From the NCBI RefSeq assembly GCF_019343105.1, contig NZ_CP073764.1, positions 2,964,001 through 3,028,000 on the forward strand: a stretch of DNA of 64,000 nt, in the 5' to 3' direction. Positions within the stretch are counted from its first letter, which is position 1. Every line of letters begins with the position of its first letter. Positions 20,903-45,591 of the stretch are shown piece by piece. Made by a program: the position numbers and the translations under genes. The notes beneath the pieces were generated by a model. It had not been told where the DNA came from and did no database searches. It saw nothing but the letters and a program-made list of their open reading frames with translations. This DNA is from Methylovirgula sp. HY1. Its GTDB lineage: Bacteria; Pseudomonadota; Alphaproteobacteria; Rhizobiales; Beijerinckiaceae.

Positions 20903-21012
20903 GTTGATTTCCACTGAGAGTTGACCCGGCAAAGAGGGATATTTCCACCGAGAATTGACCCATGTTTGAACCCTCCCTGCTTGTTTTTGGCGGGGGCAAT
21001 GGAGTGATCGAC

Positions 21013-22542
21013 ATGGCGTTATTGAGCGTGATTAGACGCTGGCATTTTCGAGAGCATCTATCGATCCGAGAAATTTCGCGTCGGACCGGCCTGTCGCGGA
21101 ACACCGTCCGCAAATATCTGCGTTCGGGCGACGTGGAACCGAAGTTCAAGGTCCCGGAGCGGCCGAGCAAGCTTGACGCCTTCGCCGACCGATTGTCGGC
21201 CTGGCTGAAAACGGAGGCCAACAAGCCGCGCAAGCAGAAGCGCACACTCAAGCAGTTGCATGCCGATCTGACCGGCCTCGGCTATGACGGCTCTTACAAT
21301 CGAGTTGCGGCCTTCGCGCGGGATTGGAAAGCTGCGCGACAGAGGGAACTGCAAACGTCGGGTCGCGGGACCTTCGTGCCGCTGTCATTTGAACCGGGCG
21401 AAGCATTCCAGTTCGATTGGTCCGAGGACTGGGCGATCATCGGCAATGAGCGCACCAAGTTGCAGGTGGCTCATACGAAGCTGAGCTACAGCCGGGCTTT
21501 CGTCGTGCGCGCCTATCTCCTGCAGACGCATGAGATGCTGTTCGACGCGCACAATCACGCCTTCCGGGCCTTTGGCGGGGTGCCCCGGCGCGGCATCTAC
21601 GACAACATGAAGACTGCCATCGACAAGGTCGGACGTGGGAAGGAGCGCGATGTCAACGCGCGCTTCCTGGCAATGGCCAGCCACTATCTGTTTGAACCCG
21701 AGTTCTGCAATCCGGCATCCGGCTGGGAGAAGGGACAGGTTGAGAAGAACGTCCAGGATGCACGTCATAGACTCTGGCAGCCCATCCCACGCTTTGCCTC
21801 GCTCGATGCCCTGAACGAATGGCTGGAGAACCGCTGCAAGGAGCTCTGGCGGCAGACGTCGCACGGGCGATTGCATGGAACGATCGCTGACATCTGGGCC
21901 GAGGAGGCCCCGGCTCTCATGGCGGTGTCACGCCCTTTCGATGGCTTCGTCGAATACACCAAACGGGTCTCACCGACCTGCCTCATCCATCTGGAGCGCA
22001 ACCGCTACAGCGTTCCGGCCTCCCTCGCCAACCGCCCGGTGAGCCTACGTGTTTACCCGGAGAAGATCGTTGTCGCCGCCGAAGGCCAGCTGATCTGCGA
22101 GCATCGCCGCATCATCGACCGTTCTCATGATGGGCCGGGCCAGACGGTCTATGACTGGCGGCATTATCTGGCTGTCGTTCAGCGCAAGCCTGGCGCGCTT
22201 CGCAATGGCGCTCCTTTTGTCGAGCTGCCGGATGCCTTCAGAATGTTACAACAGCAGCTTCTCAGGAAGCCGGGTGGCGATCGCGAGATGGTCGACATCC
22301 TGGCGCTTGTCCTCCAGCACGACGAGCAGGCTGTGCTCTCGGCCGTCGAGCTGGCCCTGGAGGCAGGCGTTCCGACGAAGACGCATGTGCTGAATCTGCT
22401 TCATAGGCTGATCGACGGCAAACCCGTCGTCCCACCAACCGTCGATGCGCCTCAGGCTTTGACGCTCACCAAGGAGCCGAAGGCCAATGTCGAACGCTAC
22501 GACGCCTTGAGAGAAACAGCGGAGACGCGCCATGCATCATAA
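21013..22542 (+). CDS. istA: IS21 transposase IstA, copy A
   Basis: 509 residues from ATG 21013 ([12 protein letters not shown]), preferred to 20962. An N-terminal helix-turn-helix ([20 protein letters not shown]) is followed by the rve-type DDE core ([28 protein letters not shown]). It cuts and joins IS21 ends with help from IstB. It overlaps istB by 11 bases. Identical to the gene at 43662-45191. Confidence 0.93.
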
Positions 22543-23344
22543 TCCTGCAAGCGGTGCCATCGTCATCATGCTCAGAAGCCTCAAGATGCACGGCATGGCC
22601 CACGCCGTCAGCGAGTTGACCGAACAGGGGGCGCCCGCCTTCGAAGCCGCTATCCCGATCCTGTCCCAGCTCGTGAAGGCAGAAACGGCTGAGCGGGAGG
22701 TCAGATCGGTGGCCTATCAGCTCAAGGCGGCACGGCTCCCCGCCTATCGCGACCTGAATGGCTTCGACTTCTCAAGCAGCGAGATCAACGAAGCGCTCGT
22801 GCGCCAGCTCCATCGCTGCGAGTTCATCGACGCGGCCAACAACATCGTTCTAGTGGGCGGCCCCGGCACAGGAAAAACCCATGTCGCGACCGCCATCGGC
22901 GTGCAGGCCATCGAGCACCACCATAAACGCGTCCGCTTCTTCTCGACCGTCGAACTGGTCAATGCGCTCGATCAAGAAAAGGCGCAAGGCAGATCCGGGC
23001 AGATCGCCAATCGCCTCGTCCACTCAGATCTCGTCGTCCTGGACGAACTGGGCTACCTGCCGTTCAGCGCATCCGGTGGCGCGCTGCTCTTCCATCTCTT
23101 GAGCAAGCTCCATGAGCGCACCAGCGTGATCATCACCACCAATCTCAGCTTCAGCGAATGGGCGAGCGTCTTCGGCGATCCTAAGATGACGACCGCATTG
23201 CTCGACCGTCTGACCCACCACTGCCACATCCTGGAGACAGGAAACGACAGCTTCCGATTCAAAAACAGCTCGGCACACGCGGCCAAAGCAAAGAAGGAGA
23301 AAAATAGGAACTTGACCATCGCACGAGACCCGAAAGATACATAA
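22532..23344 (+). CDS. istB: IS21 helper ATPase IstB, copy A
   Basis: 270 residues, DnaC-like AAA+ ATPase. Walker A is [11 protein letters not shown], Walker [13 protein letters not shown], and [10 protein letters not shown] is the sensor region. IstB selects target DNA and activates IstA. It is 100% the same protein as that at 42860-43672. Confidence 0.93.
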
Positions 23345-23398
23345 CAGGCGGGTCAGTTCTCAGTGGAAACGCCGGGTCAACTCTCAGTGGAAATCAAC

Positions 23399-23613
23399 AC
23401 CGTGGCGACGCCGTCCTTGGCTTCCATGCCGATAAGCAGATCGCCGCCCGCGGTATTGGCGAGCGATGAGACGGCTGCGAGAAACTTGACTACCTCGTCA
23501 TTTGTCTTCGCCGGCATCTCCCGTTTGAATTCGATCGTCTTTCCTTCTCGGACGACGCCAATAATGGACTGAAGATCGGATAGTCTCATGTCATCGAGAC
23601 GTTTTAAGAGCAT
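23399..23613 (-). pseudogene. AlbA_2 (Schlafen-type) domain protein, N-terminal fragment cut by IS21
   Basis: About 72 residues before the IS21 end. IEFKREMPAKTND, then SLANTAGGDLLIGMEAKDG, is the AlbA_2 signature (EFK ... ALANT.GG.L..GV.D.G). Full-length members are usually several hundred residues, often with an ATPase-like C-terminal part, and are common in defence-rich islands. Here the gene is broken by IS21 copy A. It follows the HTH/nuclease-like gene by 75 bp in the same direction, so the two may once have formed an operon. Confidence 0.7.
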
Positions 23614-23688
23614 TGAATTTCGGCAACTTGCCGCCTCTCAGTAGACCCGCTGCAAAACATACTTTTGACAAGATGCGTCAGCAGGCAA

Positions 23689-25155
23689 TTAAAGATCACT
23701 TATCTCTGGAAACCGACCCAATGAATTGGGCACCTCGTAGCAGGGGCCGCCGGCGGATACAGAGGGAACCATAAGGAGATTTGGAGCGAGCGAGAGGTGG
23801 TTTTCAATTCCGAGCCCGTCTGCACTAAAGCGAATGCTTTGAATGTGAGACCGATTCGTCGGACTGGCCCTCGGGTGCAGCGAATTGGCCACAATAGCAT
23901 TCAAACCGGCACCCTTTCCTTCTTTTGAAAATTCCGCTATCGCGAGAAACTGGGTTTCGGCTAGACCGACAAAATGCAGCCAGACAACACCCGGTCTTCC
24001 TCCGGTGCATTGATCGGCGCCATCTTTGATTACTCTAACGACGCGTTGGCTTAAGACGGTCGGCTTGTGAGGATGGATGATCAGCCCGATTATTTTCCCA
24101 CTGACTTTGATGGCGCAACGGGCGTACTCGTCGCTGTCCAGCAGAATCTGCCGTCGAAGGTCAACCAAACTTCCGGACTCAAGAAGCTGCTGCCATTGGG
24201 GACGCGGCGAAAACTCAATCGAGAAATCCTTCGTGTGAAAAGATCGTGCCGTCTCCGATCGCAGTGCATCTTCGAACTGGCTTCCCAGATTCTTACAATC
24301 GGCGGCCGGTCTTTTAAGCTTCATGGTGAAAAGTCCGGACTCATCGGCTGGCGGCCGTTCCAGTACTGTCTTGCGGAAGCGCTCTGACAAATCGACTGTC
24401 ATCTCCGTTTTAATTTGACCCCCAGTCTCTTCTGTCACTGTCTTGCATTCGACATCGACTGATCCCGACGGGGTTTCGACAAGAAGATCGAAATTTCCCA
24501 ATCCCTCGAGGTCCGCAAAAGTCACCGTGAAGCCTTTACGGGCGAAATGAGTAGCGCATCGAATTTCGTGTTCGATCTGACGGATATCTCGATCCGGCAT
24601 TAGATTGTCTTTCACCATGGCGCAGAGTCGAGAAGCGCCTTGCGATGAAAGCGACCTCTTTACTCGATTGATTCCCGCTATGAGCGAAGCGGCTCGCACG
24701 GCAACAGGATCAGCAATGTCCAGTTGAAATGGCGGTGAACCATCGACGAAGCGATTACATTGTTGATGGAAAAAATATCGGTCACCAAAAAGCGATCGAG
24801 CACCGGCGGACAACGTACCAAGCTTTTGCTCAACCTTTCTCACGGCGCTGTCGATAATGTCGGGACCGACAAAACCCAGAAATTCGGCAAATTCACGCGG
24901 AAAATCGGATTGCACAAGCGAGTATGGCGCCGTCGCCCGAGCGGCGATGTTCACCCCTCTATGGAGGAGGCTCGGATATGGCATTGGCCGACCGAGCTCC
25001 CATCCTTGCAGCGTCCGCAGCGATACCCCAAGCCGAATTGCGGCCTCAGGCTGCGACAACCGTTCTTGAGTGCGCCATGCCTTCAGTGCGGTCGCGGTAT
25101 CGCTTGTGGGAGGTAGTGTGAGGAACTCCCGTAGTCTCTCGATCGAAATTGCCAT
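23689..25155 (-). CDS. HTH plus PD-(D/E)XK-like domain fusion, unknown function
   Basis: 488 residues. Residues about 30-65 (RLSQPEAAIRLGVSLRTLQGWELG) are a Cro/CI-type helix-turn-helix. Residues about 205-240 read FARKGFTVTF..LEGLGNFDLLVETPSGSVDVECKT; the D...(V)ECK arrangement after a predicted helix is what the PD-(D/E)XK nuclease core looks like, though I infer this by eye. The C-terminal 200 residues match nothing I know. A perfect 36-bp palindrome lies 16 bases upstream of the start, so autoregulation by the HTH is likely. Neighbours are an AlbA_2 remnant, a ParDE-like pair and an integrase: a defence-island context. Could be a restriction-like effector or a regulator. Confidence 0.65.
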   Translation of the reverse strand: MAISIERLREFLTLPPTSDTATALKAWRTQERLSQPEAAIRLGVSLRTLQGWELGRPMPYPSLLHRGVNIAARATAPYSLVQSDFPREFAEFLGFVGPDIIDSAVRKVEQKLGTLSAGARSLFGDRYFFHQQCNRFVDGSPPFQLDIADPVAVRAASLIAGINRVKRSLSSQGASRLCAMVKDNLMPDRDIRQIEHEIRCATHFARKGFTVTFADLEGLGNFDLLVETPSGSVDVECKTVTEETGGQIKTEMTVDLSERFRKTVLERPPADESGLFTMKLKRPAADCKNLGSQFEDALRSETARSFHTKDFSIEFSPRPQWQQLLESGSLVDLRRQILLDSDEYARCAIKVSGKIIGLIIHPHKPTVLSQRVVRVIKDGADQCTGGRPGVVWLHFVGLAETQFLAIAEFSKEGKGAGLNAIVANSLHPRASPTNRSHIQSIRFSADGLGIENHLSLAPNLLMVPSVSAGGPCYEVPNSLGRFPEISDL

Positions 25156-25170
25156 TGAACGGCCCTGACG

Positions 25171-25206
25171 TGATACGCAATATGCGCATACGCATATTGC
25201 GTATCA
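25171..25206. promoter_or_regulatory. Perfect 16-4-16 palindrome, probable operator of the HTH gene
   Basis: TGATACGCAATATGCG, spacer CATA, then its exact inverted copy. It starts 16 bases upstream of the ATG of the gene at 23689-25155, so a bound protein would block its promoter or ribosome entry. The shorter unit ATATGCG/CGCATAT is nested inside. Perfect symmetry over 32 paired bases is far above chance. Confidence 0.75.
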
Positions 25207-25387
25207 ATGGCAAGGGCTTATTTTTATGCCCGTAGTCAAACCGCTTGTTTCGTCTACATTCGTTCTACGGCAGGGGCCACGGCCATATACCACTGTCCCA
25301 TTGTTGACCATGAGCGGGACAGTCCGCGTGCATCAAGCTCGGTCCCTGGCTGTTGGGATTTTCGCGGTCGGCTCAATCCATCGTGAG

Positions 25388-25708
25388 TCAACCATCCTCG
25401 CGGTCCGCAAAAATCTCTTCGATGTCCTGCCGCCCGTCCAGCACGCGAATGATCTCGGGCGCGTCATTCACGACCCGATAGAAAACAACATGAGGGCTAG
25501 CTGCAAGTGAACGGAACCCTGGACGCAACTCGTTTCGAGATCGACCGGCGAATGGATGATCTTCGATCGTCGCAACCACTTCACCGATTTCGCGGACAAT
25601 TTTTTCCGCAGTGTTCCTGCCGGCGACGCGCTCGTAGTAATTCCAAATCTCATCAACGTCGGCGAGCGCTTCAGGCGACCAAATAGCCGTGCCTCTGCCT
25701 TCGACCAT
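25388..25708 (-). CDS. ParE/RelE-superfamily toxin
   Basis: 106 residues from ATG 25708. IWSPEALADVDEIWNYYERVAG, then IEDHPFAGRSRNELRPGFRSL and VVFYRVVNDAPEIIRVLDGRQDIEEIF, match the ParE fold (central Arg-rich strand, C-terminal RVLxGRxD). ParE toxins poison DNA gyrase; RelE relatives cut mRNA. This sequence looks closer to ParE. It starts one base after the antitoxin stop, so the two are translationally coupled. Confidence 0.88.
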   Translation of the reverse strand: MVEGRGTAIWSPEALADVDEIWNYYERVAGRNTAEKIVREIGEVVATIEDHPFAGRSRNELRPGFRSLAASPHVVFYRVVNDAPEIIRVLDGRQDIEEIFADREDG

Positions 25709-27960: not shown

Positions 27961-29430
27961 CTAATATTTCATCCGAACAAAAGTGCCATGCGTGCCATAG
28001 CACTGATAGCCTGCCCGGCTCTTATGTGTCCGAAGTGAAGCACTATGGGTCTTGCGCTCGAAAAGCTTGCCACACGCCGTGCAGCGGAAGACATAAGTGG
28101 TGCCACCCGACGATGCCCCTGGTCGACGACGCGTCGATCTTTGCGACGTTACGCTTCCTGTGACCCGTGATGTTGGGGGTATCGACCGCGGACCGACCGG
28201 CGTCAATTCAATCGGGTAGCGTGGAGAAAAACTGGTCTGGGTCGGCGAAACTCCGAGAATGCTGTCAATGCGATAACTGCGGGCCTCCCCACTATCAGCG
28301 CGAACAGCCATCAACAGGACGTCCCCAGCGCGGGATCGACGCAGCGAGTAGGCTTCGATTGTGCGGGTCGATCGCTTGCCCTGTTGGTCGCGGTAGTCGA
28401 GATCAATCAGTAATCGATTGGCAGCAGCGAACCGGATCGTTTCGATGAAGGTCTGCCCGCGTGTTCCTGACGAAAGGTCAACGACGCGTTCGCGAATAAC
28501 GTCCTGGCTTGCACCAAGTAGCGGCATCGGCGGAAGGGCCGGGGCCGTGAGCTGATCATGAAGCCAATTGAATATCTCCGGCAGGGCATCCCAGAACGAG
28601 GCGATCGGCAAAAGGGCCGGAAGCTGATGGTTCAGCATGTTTGCCCAGCCCGTCTCGACATCGCCATGATGTTGCTCGATCTCGGCAAGCTGGGGCAATG
28701 AAATGCCCTTGAAGGCACATTTCTCGCGCAGCACATAGACAAACTGCTGCTGCTCGGGGCGCGCCTCGGCATTTCGGTAAAGGTTCACGACATCATAGAG
28801 ATCGCGCGGCCGAGTACGCTCGGCAAGGGCTCGGAATTTTTCGGCGAAGGCTTCCACGTAGTCGTACGCAAGGACTTCGATCCCCTCTTCCGGAGCATCG
28901 GAATAAGGATGGAAGATTTCTACTGCCTCGGGCGGCAGAACAACGCGTTCGTCGGCGGTGAGGTCGAGCTTGATGCGTGGCAAAGGGCGCGTCGGTGAAA
29001 TTGGTCCCTTGTAGCTGATCTTGCCTTGGCAGGAGAGGTTGCCGCGAGGGTTTCGATAAATATCGAATTCCTGCTGATCGGCAGGAATTTCGATGCCGGT
29101 TTCGTCATAGATCCATGCGCCTATTTCGGCGAAAACGCGCTTGAGAAACGCTTTGTCGATATGCCCCTCCTGGCGCAAGGTGAAGTCTAGATCTTCTGAA
29201 AACCGATAGGTTTCGAAGAAGCACTTCTTGAGGCAGGTTCCGCCTTTGAATATCCAGCTTTCGGCAAGCTCCTCGTGGGCATAGATTCCGGCAAGCACCC
29301 AGCCGAGGACGTAATCCTTCTCAATGACATGCGGTGTCAGCGATGTCTGTATGGCGAGATCAAGGATTTCGCGCTTGTCGATCAACCAGCGTCTCCGGGT
29401 GTCCAAGATGGCGGGATGAGGAGCCGCCAT
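27961..29430 (-). CDS. AbiEii-type nucleotidyltransferase toxin with WYL-like and zinc-finger tail
   Basis: 489 residues from ATG 29430, overlapping the antitoxin gene by 49 bases. FKGGTCLKKCF..YRFSEDLDFTL is the nucleotidyltransferase active site (GG-T/S and SEDLDF aspartates). EKFRALAERTRPRDLYDVVNLY is the second AbiEii block. From about residue 340 the protein continues with a WYL-like domain (RSTRTIEAYSLRR, then VRADSGEARSYRIDSI), then a linker and a CxxC...H...H/C finger (FRCTACGKLFERK). AbiEii toxins modify tRNA or other nucleic-acid targets and stop growth during phage attack. The tail is an unusual extension. Confidence 0.85.
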   Translation of the reverse strand: MAAPHPAILDTRRRWLIDKREILDLAIQTSLTPHVIEKDYVLGWVLAGIYAHEELAESWIFKGGTCLKKCFFETYRFSEDLDFTLRQEGHIDKAFLKRVFAEIGAWIYDETGIEIPADQQEFDIYRNPRGNLSCQGKISYKGPISPTRPLPRIKLDLTADERVVLPPEAVEIFHPYSDAPEEGIEVLAYDYVEAFAEKFRALAERTRPRDLYDVVNLYRNAEARPEQQQFVYVLREKCAFKGISLPQLAEIEQHHGDVETGWANMLNHQLPALLPIASFWDALPEIFNWLHDQLTAPALPPMPLLGASQDVIRERVVDLSSGTRGQTFIETIRFAAANRLLIDLDYRDQQGKRSTRTIEAYSLRRSRAGDVLLMAVRADSGEARSYRIDSILGVSPTQTSFSPRYPIELTPVGPRSIPPTSRVTGSVTSQRSTRRRPGASSGGTTYVFRCTACGKLFERKTHSASLRTHKSRAGYQCYGTHGTFVRMKY

Positions 29431-30194
29431 TTTGAGATGAGTCGCTTGCAATCCAAAGCGGGATCGAGCTTGGCATTGCCTGCCGTCAGCCGTGCGAGGC
29501 AACGCTCCACAAGGGCAGCACTGTCGCCACGTCTTTCTACGAGAAAGCCGAGGCGCTTGAACACGGCGCCATTGCCGAGGCGATCGCCATATTCGACTAG
29601 TTTTTCATCGCTGCGGTCTGATCGCTTGAGATAAACATTCAGGCAATCCGAGACCTGCTGAATTCCGCCGCCGAGCGCGGGATCGTCGAGCATGTCGATG
29701 ATGGTTCGATGAACATCGGAGACGGGCACTTTTGTACTATGCCGCCAGACCGGCTTGGTCCCGAAAATTTTTTCCGGCTTCAGGTGCTTCAACGTGAATT
29801 CAAAGCCCTGTCGCTCTTGGCGCTTCTCGCGGATGGTCTGCCCCGTGATCACCACGATGTCTTTGAAAATCTGCTCGGTGAGGTCCCAGTGCTCGGCAGC
29901 CGTTCGGCCCCCTATATAAGCGGGGTCGAAGAGTGCGGGTACGAGAACCCAGGCATCATCGAGAACGCGTTCCAAGCCGAGGGTGTCGATTGACGCCGGA
30001 ACATAAGCACCGGACCCGACCCGGCTTAGCCAGCCTTGTTCGCGCCACCGGGCGAGTCGCTTGGCGGCCTCGGTTCGCGAAATCGCGAGCGCCTTTATCA
30101 CATCGGCAATGCGGATCACGTCTCCCGAAGCGGCGAGAACTCGCTGAAGCTGGGCGCGGCCACGAGGCAATCGAGAGGAAGTTTGGTCATTCAT
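29382..30194 (-). CDS. AbiEi-type antitoxin / transcriptional repressor
   Basis: 270 residues. The N-terminal winged helix (DVIRIADVIKALAISRTEAAKRLARWREQGWL) is followed by YIGGRTAAEHWDLTEQIF and VWRHSTKVPVSDVHRTIIDML, typical AbiEi C-terminal blocks. AbiEi proteins neutralise AbiEii (type IV system) and repress their own operon by binding inverted repeats. Upstream, at 30253-30285, is such an inverted repeat. First gene of the two-gene operon. Confidence 0.88.
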   Translation of the reverse strand: MNDQTSSRLPRGRAQLQRVLAASGDVIRIADVIKALAISRTEAAKRLARWREQGWLSRVGSGAYVPASIDTLGLERVLDDAWVLVPALFDPAYIGGRTAAEHWDLTEQIFKDIVVITGQTIREKRQERQGFEFTLKHLKPEKIFGTKPVWRHSTKVPVSDVHRTIIDMLDDPALGGGIQQVSDCLNVYLKRSDRSDEKLVEYGDRLGNGAVFKRLGFLVERRGDSAALVERCLARLTAGNAKLDPALDCKRLISKWRLLIPPSWTPGDAG

Positions 30195-31313: not shown

Positions 31314-31425
31314 GGTCGTAGGCAGCAAAGCAAAACGCTCGCACGATGCCGGGAAGCCTTAGAAATCACTTGCGGCGAATTTGATCGCGCTATGCGCACC
31401 GCGCTAACAAGTGGAACGAACGCTT

Positions 31426-32208
31426 ATGAGTGACGCGGAAATCAGGGGTGGGCTGCTAGAACATTTTCATAGGCTGCGACACAACAACGGAGGGTGGGTC
31501 CCTATCTCCGAAACAATTCTGGCTCCTGCGCCTGTGAGACTTCAAGTGATTGGCGGGGTGTGTCAGCAACTTGCGGAGATTGGACTGATCCAGTGGAAGC
31601 CGCTGCAAGGACCAAGCGGAGTCGAGGCGGGCATGGCCAAAATCACCGGGAAAGGAGTTGCGGCCGTAGAAGCTCTAAGCTCTTCCGAGATTGACATTCG
31701 CTTTCCGTCAATGGCTCAGGCTGAAAGGGCTGAATTCCCGCCGCATGCACTATGGAACAAGGAGCAAGGCGGCACCTCGGTAGACATCAAGCAGATTGAG
31801 CCAGAGACCATGAAACTTGCGAAAGCGCTTCTTCACAGCGCCATTATTGCGAGTTGCGAAGGGCTGCTTCAGTCCAAGCACTACGCTCAAGCTGTTGAGC
31901 TCAGTTTTAAGGTCGTACGCGATCGTCTAAGAGAGCTCACTGGTCATGAAAAGGGATCAGATGCCTTTGGCAAAGGTAGGTTATATATTAAAGGCGCGAT
32001 AGCGCCGCATGTCGACAGAGACTTTAATGAGGGTGTCAAATTCCTGACTATGGCCATCGACATGTTTCGTAACGAAAAGAGCCATACTTCGGAAATTGGG
32101 ATCAATGAACTTGAAAAGGCACTCCAATATCTGATCTTAAGTAGTCTCGCGATGCGTCTACTCGACGATGCCGAAATTCGTTCGTCACTGTTTTCGAACG
32201 GGCAATGA
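31426..32208 (+). CDS. TIGR02391 (Ymh-like) domain protein
   Basis: 260 residues from ATG 31426. The N-terminal part may be a winged helix (VQVIGGVCQQLAEIGLIQWKPL, then ITGKGVAAVEAL). The C-terminal half matches the TIGR02391/Ymh pattern: SKHYAQAVELSFKVVRDRLRELTG, FLTMAIDMFRNEKSHTSE, LEKALQYLILSSLAMRLLD. The domain is found in phage, plasmid and defence-island proteins; biochemical role not established. Just downstream begins the nested insertion-sequence block. Confidence 0.7.
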   Translation: MSDAEIRGGLLEHFHRLRHNNGGWVPISETILAPAPVRLQVIGGVCQQLAEIGLIQWKPLQGPSGVEAGMAKITGKGVAAVEALSSSEIDIRFPSMAQAERAEFPPHALWNKEQGGTSVDIKQIEPETMKLAKALLHSAIIASCEGLLQSKHYAQAVELSFKVVRDRLRELTGHEKGSDAFGKGRLYIKGAIAPHVDRDFNEGVKFLTMAIDMFRNEKSHTSEIGINELEKALQYLILSSLAMRLLDDAEIRSSLFSNGQ

Positions 32209-42859: not shown

Positions 42860-43672
42860 TTATGTATCTTTCGGGTCTCGTGCGATGGTCAAGTTCCTAT
42901 TTTTCTCCTTCTTTGCTTTGGCCGCGTGTGCCGAGCTGTTTTTGAATCGGAAGCTGTCGTTTCCTGTCTCCAGGATGTGGCAGTGGTGGGTCAGACGGTC
43001 GAGCAATGCGGTCGTCATCTTAGGATCGCCGAAGACGCTCGCCCATTCGCTGAAGCTGAGATTGGTGGTGATGATCACGCTGGTGCGCTCATGGAGCTTG
43101 CTCAAGAGATGGAAGAGCAGCGCGCCACCGGATGCGCTGAACGGCAGGTAGCCCAGTTCGTCCAGGACGACGAGATCTGAGTGGACGAGGCGATTGGCGA
43201 TCTGCCCGGATCTGCCTTGCGCCTTTTCTTGATCGAGCGCATTGACCAGTTCGACGGTCGAGAAGAAGCGGACGCGTTTATGGTGGTGCTCGATGGCCTG
43301 CACGCCGATGGCGGTCGCGACATGGGTTTTTCCTGTGCCGGGGCCGCCCACTAGAACGATGTTGTTGGCCGCGTCGATGAACTCGCAGCGATGGAGCTGG
43401 CGCACGAGCGCTTCGTTGATCTCGCTGCTTGAGAAGTCGAAGCCATTCAGGTCGCGATAGGCGGGGAGCCGTGCCGCCTTGAGCTGATAGGCCACCGATC
43501 TGACCTCCCGCTCAGCCGTTTCTGCCTTCACGAGCTGGGACAGGATCGGGATAGCGGCTTCGAAGGCGGGCGCCCCCTGTTCGGTCAACTCGCTGACGGC
43601 GTGGGCCATGCCGTGCATCTTGAGGCTTCTGAGCATGATGACGATGGCACCGCTTGCAGGATTATGATGCAT
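42860..43672 (-). CDS. istB: IS21 helper ATPase IstB, copy B
   Basis: 270 residues, identical to the protein at 22532-23344, with [11 protein letters not shown] and LVVLDELGY motifs. Intact. Confidence 0.93.
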
Positions 43673-45191
43673 GGCGCGTCTCCGCTGTTTCTCTCAAGGC
43701 GTCGTAGCGTTCGACATTGGCCTTCGGCTCCTTGGTGAGCGTCAAAGCCTGAGGCGCATCGACGGTTGGTGGGACGACGGGTTTGCCGTCGATCAGCCTA
43801 TGAAGCAGATTCAGCACATGCGTCTTCGTCGGAACGCCTGCCTCCAGGGCCAGCTCGACGGCCGAGAGCACAGCCTGCTCGTCGTGCTGGAGGACAAGCG
43901 CCAGGATGTCGACCATCTCGCGATCGCCACCCGGCTTCCTGAGAAGCTGCTGTTGTAACATTCTGAAGGCATCCGGCAGCTCGACAAAAGGAGCGCCATT
44001 GCGAAGCGCGCCAGGCTTGCGCTGAACGACAGCCAGATAATGCCGCCAGTCATAGACCGTCTGGCCCGGCCCATCATGAGAACGGTCGATGATGCGGCGA
44101 TGCTCGCAGATCAGCTGGCCTTCGGCGGCGACAACGATCTTCTCCGGGTAAACACGTAGGCTCACCGGGCGGTTGGCGAGGGAGGCCGGAACGCTGTAGC
44201 GGTTGCGCTCCAGATGGATGAGGCAGGTCGGTGAGACCCGTTTGGTGTATTCGACGAAGCCATCGAAAGGGCGTGACACCGCCATGAGAGCCGGGGCCTC
44301 CTCGGCCCAGATGTCAGCGATCGTTCCATGCAATCGCCCGTGCGACGTCTGCCGCCAGAGCTCCTTGCAGCGGTTCTCCAGCCATTCGTTCAGGGCATCG
44401 AGCGAGGCAAAGCGTGGGATGGGCTGCCAGAGTCTATGACGTGCATCCTGGACGTTCTTCTCAACCTGTCCCTTCTCCCAGCCGGATGCCGGATTGCAGA
44501 ACTCGGGTTCAAACAGATAGTGGCTGGCCATTGCCAGGAAGCGCGCGTTGACATCGCGCTCCTTCCCACGTCCGACCTTGTCGATGGCAGTCTTCATGTT
44601 GTCGTAGATGCCGCGCCGGGGCACCCCGCCAAAGGCCCGGAAGGCGTGATTGTGCGCGTCGAACAGCATCTCATGCGTCTGCAGGAGATAGGCGCGCACG
44701 ACGAAAGCCCGGCTGTAGCTCAGCTTCGTATGAGCCACCTGCAACTTGGTGCGCTCATTGCCGATGATCGCCCAGTCCTCGGACCAATCGAACTGGAATG
44801 CTTCGCCCGGTTCAAATGACAGCGGCACGAAGGTCCCGCGACCCGACGTTTGCAGTTCCCTCTGTCGCGCAGCTTTCCAATCCCGCGCGAAGGCCGCAAC
44901 TCGATTGTAAGAGCCGTCATAGCCGAGGCCGGTCAGATCGGCATGCAACTGCTTGAGTGTGCGCTTCTGCTTGCGCGGCTTGTTGGCCTCCGTTTTCAGC
45001 CAGGCCGACAATCGGTCGGCGAAGGCGTCAAGCTTGCTCGGCCGCTCCGGGACCTTGAACTTCGGTTCCACGTCGCCCGAACGCAGATATTTGCGGACGG
45101 TGTTCCGCGACAGGCCGGTCCGACGCGAAATTTCTCGGATCGATAGATGCTCTCGAAAATGCCAGCGTCTAATCACGCTCAATAACGCCAT
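43662..45191 (-). CDS. istA: IS21 transposase IstA, copy B
   Basis: 509 residues from ATG 45191, identical to copy A. Intact, so both copies of this IS21 could still be active. Confidence 0.93.
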
Positions 45192-45591
45192 GTCGATCAC
45201 TCCATTGCCCCCGCCAAAAACAAGCAGGGAGGGTTCAAACATGGGTCAATTCTCGGTGGAAATATCCCTCTTTGCCGGGTCAACTCTCAGTGGAAATCAA
45301 CAAGCTGGGCGAGCCGAGAAGGTTACGTCCGGTTCTGCGAGAGGCTGCAGGTGAAACTCCTTCAGAAGATGGCGGGCAAAGGTTTTTTCGCGAAGCCAAG
45401 AAATCGATGAAGGTACGGGCCTTAAGCAGGATGTGTCATTTGCCTCCCTCTTGTTCATGTTGAAACAATGTCTACTATTCACTCGCCAATTGAGGAATGA
45501 AAAGCTGCTTCCATGCCTGTACATCTAGCGATGTCGGGCGTAACGAAAGAAGAGCCGGACCCACAACCCGACTTGATTGCGAGTCCATTCG

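What the first reader, a model, noticed from the sequence alone, without database searches (positions are those of the whole stretch)
23689..25206. HTH/nuclease-like fusion under a perfect 36-bp palindrome in an island: candidate undescribed system
One protein joins a Cro/CI-type HTH to a segment with D...(V)ECK spacing like a PD-(D/E)XK nuclease, plus 200 unassigned residues. A perfect 16-4-16 palindrome lies 16 bases from its start. The neighbours (AlbA_2 fragment 75 bp downstream, ParDE-like pair, integrase) are typical of defence islands. A self-repressed nuclease set free when its operator is lost or its repressor state changes is one reading.
Basis: partly seen in the sequence, partly recalled or inferred. 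Interest (0 to 1): 0.7.

Follow-up and report, generated by a model that had tools for sequence, protein, structure and literature searches.

The report
Self-controlled DNA-cutting enzyme, likely defence
A bacterial mobile island carries a gene for a probable DNA-cutting enzyme of an unnamed family, fused to a DNA-binding switch that most likely shuts off its own gene, which would make a tidy one-gene weapon against invading DNA.

Summary
One intact 488-residue ORF (23689-25155, minus strand) joins an Xre-type HTH to a core of about 410 residues; a perfect 16-4-16 palindrome lies 15 bases upstream. The core has no match in Pfam, NCBIfam, PADLOC, PHROGs or PDB sequences. I found 27 relatives in other genomes or plasmids, none with a recognisable HTH. 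It is very probably a PD-(D/E)XK nuclease: E197 and E236-C237-K238 are invariant and D223 nearly so; the model has the right helix/strand order; a profile comparison with Mrr_cat gives 90% probability (0 of 100 shuffles reach it). The palindrome is two overlapping 17-bp dyads over a promoter-like site, the only such dyads with 0-1 mismatch in the 3.7-Mb genome. Autorepression is likely, as in known C-protein/restriction-enzyme fusions, but no methyltransferase was found among 11 neighbour ORFs scanned. AlbA_2 pairing is not supported. Relatives sit on plasmids, in prophages and, in one clade, among nucleotide-modification genes. Defence is plausible but inferred. Verdict: a new variant of a known design, with a nuclease family unnamed in the libraries searched.

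The parts
23689..25155 (-). HTH-nuclease fusion gene, 488 aa
   Evidence: no stop inside
24955..25098 (-). Xre-type HTH, residues about 20-67
   Evidence: PHROG 2104 E=2.5e-6; HTH_31 E=1.9e-4, under its cut-off
24190..24600 (-). predicted PD-(D/E)XK domain, residues 186-322, with E197, D223, E236, K238
   Evidence: conservation, model, Foldseek, hhalign to Mrr_cat
23692..24189 (-). C-terminal part, residues 323-488, conserved in the family (Q382 in 26 of 26 aligned), function unknown
25171..25206 (.). perfect 36-bp palindrome (16-4-16), putative operator
25173..25189 (.). 17-bp dyad 1, one mismatch to ATACGCANNNTGCGTAT
25188..25204 (.). 17-bp dyad 2, no mismatch
25179..25207 (-). promoter-like TTGATA-17-CATATT, nearly all inside the palindrome
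   Evidence: 9 of 12 matches; mean 1.2 such sites in shuffles of the 1.8 kb scanned

Best explanation
The gene is a horizontally acquired, single-gene nuclease module. Its core is a PD-(D/E)XK DNA endonuclease of an unnamed, sparse, mobile family (predicted). An added N-terminal Xre HTH binds, as dimers, two overlapping dyads laid over its own promoter and represses it (inferred), so that enzyme level stays low in the settled host. On transfer to a new cell, or if the protein is drawn away from the operator by other DNA, transcription rises. The nuclease most likely acts on incoming phage or plasmid DNA (inferred). Shown by sequence: the fusion, the catalytic residue set and its conservation, and an operator-like site found nowhere else in the genome that lies over a promoter-like site. 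Not shown: cleavage, DNA binding, defence.
For: Catalytic set: in 11 members whose ten relatives were found by whole-protein or profile searches, E197, D223, E236, C237, K238 and G245 are invariant. In a 26-member alignment, partly fetched through an ECK-containing pattern, E197, E236, C237, K238, G245 and Q382 are identical in 26 of 26 and D223 in 25 of 26. Model: helix 192-206, strands 210-212, 224-228, 231-241, helix 250-266, strand 274-280, block pLDDT 72-94 over residues 191-280. Profile-profile to Mrr_cat: probability 89.7, score 39.9; E197 over E, D223 over D, E236 over Mrr's Q, K238 over K; 0 of 100 column shuffles reach the score (best 17.9). NERD: probability 25.1, score 26.2, 0 of 100. 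Foldseek probability 0.98 and 0.96 to viral PD(D/E)XK proteins, 0.77 to Hjc, 0.75 and 0.77 to I-Ssp6803I. Operator: two dyads, the only sites with 0-1 mismatch in the genome, over the one promoter-like site found in 23600-25400. HTH and palindrome occur together only here: no HTH recognised in 27 relatives, and the longest perfect arms within 150 nt upstream of the 27 are 4-8 nt, once 11, against 16 here. Mobility: among 60 near genomes only the window's own has the gene; gene G+C 53.4% against 58.0% for the window; relatives on plasmids, beside a phage baseplate-hub gene, beside a serine recombinase with a terminase 3 kb on, and near integrases.
Against: No Foldseek match at E <= 0.001 in any of three searches; ranked by E-value the first rows are unrelated folds of low probability (5-aminolevulinate synthase; arginine repressor). 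One 0.87 match is labelled head-to-tail connector, and others of high probability are unnamed. The isolated domain has pTM 0.45. The HTH is modelled poorly (pLDDT under 50 for residues 35-75) and stays under Pfam's cut-offs. The promoter-like site alone is no better than chance. No PADLOC model matches the core. Five relatives follow housekeeping genes (uvrB, mutS, recJ, nrdJ, hisS), not defence genes. D223 is E in L041. One relative, L044, also has a fair upstream dyad (11-nt arms) without an HTH.
Confidence: 0.55

Rival explanations
1. C-protein-like switch: the HTH activates its promoter at low level and represses it at high level, as in C-restriction-enzyme fusions of type II R-M systems, delaying the nuclease after entry into a new cell.
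For: An active C-REase fusion is documented (PMC3850674: abstract, sections 5 and 9). Two adjacent dyads resemble tandem C boxes (recalled, not tested).
Against: No methyltransferase among 11 neighbour ORFs scanned (8, 3). Both dyads lie in the -35 to -10 span, which fits repression better than activation.
Confidence: 0.15
2. The HTH is the target-recognition part: it steers the nuclease to a sequence such as the palindrome, so the enzyme is a restriction or homing-like endonuclease.
For: Weak fold similarity to the homing enzyme I-Ssp6803I. The dyad is rare: 2 sites with 0-1 mismatch in the genome.
Against: The best sites lie in the gene's own promoter and would be cut. The 27 relatives do without a recognisable HTH.
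Confidence: 0.1
3. A DNA-repair or maintenance nuclease, not a defence gene.
For: Relatives lie directly after uvrB, mutS, recJ and nrdJ on the same strand.
Against: Sparse: only the own genome of 60 near ones, 2 of 297 in the order, 7 of 385 in the class, each including the own genome. Plasmid and prophage settings.
Confidence: 0.12
4. A plain transcription regulator whose nuclease-like core is dead and serves as a sensor.
For: HTH plus an operator-like site unique in the genome.
Against: The full catalytic set is kept in the window protein and across the family.
Confidence: 0.08

Closest known systems
C-REase fusions, e.g. CR.NsoJS138I (PMC3850674: abstract, sections 5 and 9 read)
   Same: One polypeptide with an N-terminal HTH regulator and a restriction nuclease, with operator sites above its own gene.
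   Different: Those are PvuII orthologues in R-M systems with a methyltransferase. Here none was found among 11 neighbour ORFs scanned, and no PDB chain matches at E <= 1 with the protein; the family profile gave one chance-like match at E=0.13.
Mrr_cat (PF04471) PD-(D/E)XK nucleases
   Same: Profile-profile probability 89.7 with catalytic positions in register.
   Different: No Mrr_cat match in the Pfam scan of 18 members at E <= 0.1; about 110 more residues before and 165 after the nuclease fold; Mrr has Q-x-K in the sequence aligned, this family E-x-K.
Nucleotide-modification defence systems (DefensePredictor, PMC13092281: passages only)
   Same: Seven relatives sit among TS-like, MazG/MazG_C, DCD-like, HMUDK_hel and UDG genes in varying sets. 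That paper names a thymidylate synthase and a 5-hydroxymethyluracil kinase among newly validated defence domains and MazG-C among predicted ones.
   Different: None of these genes is among the 11 window neighbours scanned, and the passages seen do not name this nuclease.
Hjc resolvases and I-Ssp6803I
   Same: Local fold match, probability 0.75-0.77, over 49-65 columns.
   Different: No E <= 0.001.

Membership tests
PD-(D/E)XK nuclease superfamily | D and E-x-K catalytic residues | tested here: met
   D223 in 25 of 26, E236 and K238 in 26 of 26; 11 of 11 in the set not fetched by an ECK pattern
PD-(D/E)XK nuclease superfamily | alpha-beta-beta-beta-alpha-beta core | tested here: met
   order of elements in the model; three-dimensional agreement only through Foldseek probabilities
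PD-(D/E)XK nuclease superfamily | statistical link to a known member | tested here: met
   hhalign to Mrr_cat 89.7, 0 of 100 shuffles; Foldseek itself gave no E <= 0.001
PD-(D/E)XK nuclease superfamily | DNA cleavage | not testable with these tools
   -
Type II R-M system with C-REase fusion | HTH fused to a nuclease | tested here: met
   (nuclease predicted)
Type II R-M system with C-REase fusion | operator sites upstream of its own gene | tested here: inconclusive
   dyads present and unique; binding not testable here
Type II R-M system with C-REase fusion | cognate DNA methyltransferase beside it | tested here: not met
   none among 11 neighbour ORFs scanned (8, 3); the rest of the genome was not searched
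   gene cut by IS21; no such cluster shared between window and relatives
Known anti-phage system (PADLOC-DB 2.0.0) | match of the core to a defence model | tested here: not met
   only HTH_VI at E=0.0014, on the HTH

The most novel reading that the evidence does not exclude
The family is the cutting arm of an immune system built on thymine or uracil hypermodification: in one alphaproteobacterial clade it travels with a TS-like enzyme, a MazG-C protein, a dCTP-deaminase-like protein, a 5-hmdU kinase and a UDG, and may tell host from phage DNA by a modified base. The solitary members, including the window gene with its added self-repressing switch, would be modification-dependent nucleases against hypermodified invaders.
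Probability: 0.17. Interest if true: 0.8.

Novelty: new variant of a known kind. Interest (0 to 1): 0.5.

Why it matters
The nuclease family has no entry in the protein-family libraries searched, though it turns up on plasmids, in prophages and in nucleotide-modification islands. If active, it adds a PD-(D/E)XK effector to conflict systems, and is a concrete candidate for the nuclease that goes with base-modification genes, whose role in immunity is still open. The window member shows how a free-standing nuclease could gain its own off-switch by one domain fusion.

Tried and rejected
Searches that gave no relative: tblastn in phages, single-protein scan of viral contigs, PDB sequences with the protein and with the family profile (one match at E=0.13, a designed ankyrin, taken as chance), genome contigs with the window+L005 alignment (146 pattern matches, none confirmed).

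How 27 was counted: three plasmid loci (L002, L003, L004), eight genomes found by the genome search (L005, L006=L047, L007=L029, L017, L018, L019=L028, L020=L040, L119), and the sixteen other loci. L006 and L047 were merged because their proteins are letter for letter alike; the others because the contigs have the same length. Some of the 27 are near-copies (L002/L003; L042/L043/L044). Two, L018 and L038, are interrupted. Left out: six matches confined to the HTH segment (L008-L013), and two distant matches (L121, L122).

Rejected as independent evidence: the ECK residues in the 19 loci, which were fetched through a pattern that holds them. Not established: tRNA-Arg as integration site; no 15-base stretch of the tRNA region recurs elsewhere in the window.

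Literature: searches; seen were passages of PMC13092281 and PMC12707154, and the abstract and two sections of PMC3850674. None was seen to describe this nuclease, but four papers that bear on nucleotide-modification systems are not held, so absence from print is not shown.

Full report
What is there. The gene is one uninterrupted ORF of 488 residues, 23689-25155 on the minus strand. The first 75 residues hold an Xre-type HTH (PHROG 2104 at E=2.5e-6; HTH_31 at 1.9e-4, below cut-off). The remaining 410 or so match nothing in Pfam, NCBIfam, PADLOC or PHROGs at E <= 1, nor any PDB chain. The palindrome TGATACGCAATATGCG-CATA-CGCATATTGCGTATCA is exact and is the only perfect inverted repeat in the window with arms of 11 or more and spacer up to 12.

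The family. Distant relatives were found on three plasmids at 25-26% identity, in whole genomes and, with an alignment whose pattern holds the ECK motif, in 19 genome contigs; with a second pattern added, one viral contig. Repeats of one genome merged, this is 27 relatives, some of them near-copies of each other. The family is sparse: only the window's own genome among 60 near ones, 2 of 297 in the order, 7 of 385 in the class, each count including the own genome; in the phylum, 7 of 398 including the own genome and two distant matches that I do not count. The relatives begin close to where residue 75 of the window protein ends. Upstream of the start used, each of the 27 is closed by a stop within 21 residues. 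A few have short extra starts (L036 about 29 residues, L119 about 34). Pfam scans of 7 and 18 aligned members find an HTH only in the window protein, and tblastn of the HTH against 500 nt upstream of the 27 finds nothing better than E=0.36. So the HTH looks like a clean addition seen in none of 27. The closest relative, L005, is 29% identical and groups with the window protein with support 1.0.

Why a nuclease. In 11 members whose ten relatives were not fetched by an ECK pattern, the invariant residues are E197, D223, E236, C237, K238 and G245, which hold the PD-(D/E)XK set (its definition is recalled). In the 26-member alignment only L041 departs, with E for D223. AlphaFold2 on the window protein with 17 loci gives helix, three strands, helix, strand in the expected order, with E-x-K in the third strand and block pLDDT of 72-94 over residues 191-280. 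Foldseek finds nothing at E <= 0.001, and ranked by E-value the first PDB rows are unrelated folds; by its homology probability the named matches at the top are of this fold: viral PD(D/E)XK proteins at 0.98 and 0.96, Hjc at 0.77, I-Ssp6803I at 0.75 and 0.77, while one at 0.87 is labelled head-to-tail connector and others are unnamed. A profile of the domain (residues 186-322) against 26 Mrr_cat sequences gives probability 89.7 with E197, D223 and K238 over Mrr's E, D and K and E236 over its Q; 0 of 100 column-shuffled profiles reach the score (one search is the same with wrongly oriented sequences and no signal). I put the nuclease fold at about 0.9.

How it is likely controlled. The palindrome resolves into two overlapping dyads that fit ATACGCANNNTGCGTAT with 1 and 0 mismatches. 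In the 3.74-Mb genome no other site has fewer than 2 mismatches; nine other places have 2, and the reversed-pattern control finds six in all. The promoter-like site TTGATA-17-CATATT (25207-25179) is nearly all inside the palindrome, though such a site is expected about once in the stretch by chance. In the 150 nt upstream of the 27 relatives the longest perfect arms are 4-8 nt, once 11. HTH and large dyad thus appear together, in this one case. Autorepression is the simplest reading; it is an inference.

Setting. The AlbA_2 gene is a remnant cut by an IS21 (20903-23398, 28-bp terminal repeats), so it is no partner. Two integrases, ParE and an AbiE pair mark a mobile island. Relatives are near a Phd/RelE pair on two plasmids, beside a phage baseplate-hub gene (L047; that it is a P2-like prophage is my reading), beside a serine recombinase with a terminase 3 kb on (L041) and near integrases (L043, L044). 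One clade of seven (L030, L031, L032, L034, L036, L039, L040; support 1.0) lies largely in islands of nucleotide-modification genes. In L030, L031, L032, L034, L036, L039 and L038 (interrupted, not in the tree) neighbour clusters include TS-like, MazG/MazG_C, DCD-like, HMUDK_hel, UDG, M78 protease and papain-like genes in varying sets; families were assigned on representatives, and two are weak: the TS-like cluster matches TIGR03283 at 4.9e-8 under its cut-off in L036 and nothing in L034, and UDG is under its cut-off. In L040 only a 66-residue piece of the TS-like cluster remains. The DefensePredictor paper (passages only) reports a thymidylate synthase and a 5-hydroxymethyluracil kinase among newly validated defence domains and names aGPT-Pplase and MazG-C among predicted ones; its legend of predicted systems also names UDG. 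This makes defence the leading role for the clade; for the window gene it is an extension by homology.

Comparison. The design, a regulator HTH fused to a restriction nuclease above its own operator, is documented for PvuII-like C-REase fusions, one of which had both activities (PMC3850674). The window gene looks like that on paper but fails R-M membership, as no methyltransferase was found among 11 neighbour ORFs scanned. It is a new variant of a known design with a nuclease family that the libraries searched do not name.

Noticed in passing
L005, L035, L029, L033, L018: Relatives lie directly downstream, same strand, of uvrB, mutS, recJ, nrdJ and hisS; whether this is chance, an insertion habit or shared function is open.
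   Followed up: partly
window 20903-23398 and 42860-45242: Two IS21 copies with identical IstA and IstB proteins; the first cuts the AlbA_2 gene.
   Followed up: partly
window 27961-30194: AbiE pair whose AbiEii protein also matches WYL and, below cut-off, a zinc ribbon.
   Followed up: no
window 31411-32208 and L041:7166-7915: Hypoth_Ymh gene in the window; another lies immediately upstream of the core gene in L041.
   Followed up: no
window 23692-24189 (residues 323-488 of the protein): The C-terminal part shows a helix-strand-strand-helix-strand order and could be a worn second copy of the nuclease fold.
   Followed up: no
L034, L036, L039: Recurrent set of Xre HTH, M78 protease (with an I42 inhibitor domain in L034) and papain-like protease beside the nucleotide-modification genes.
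   Followed up: no
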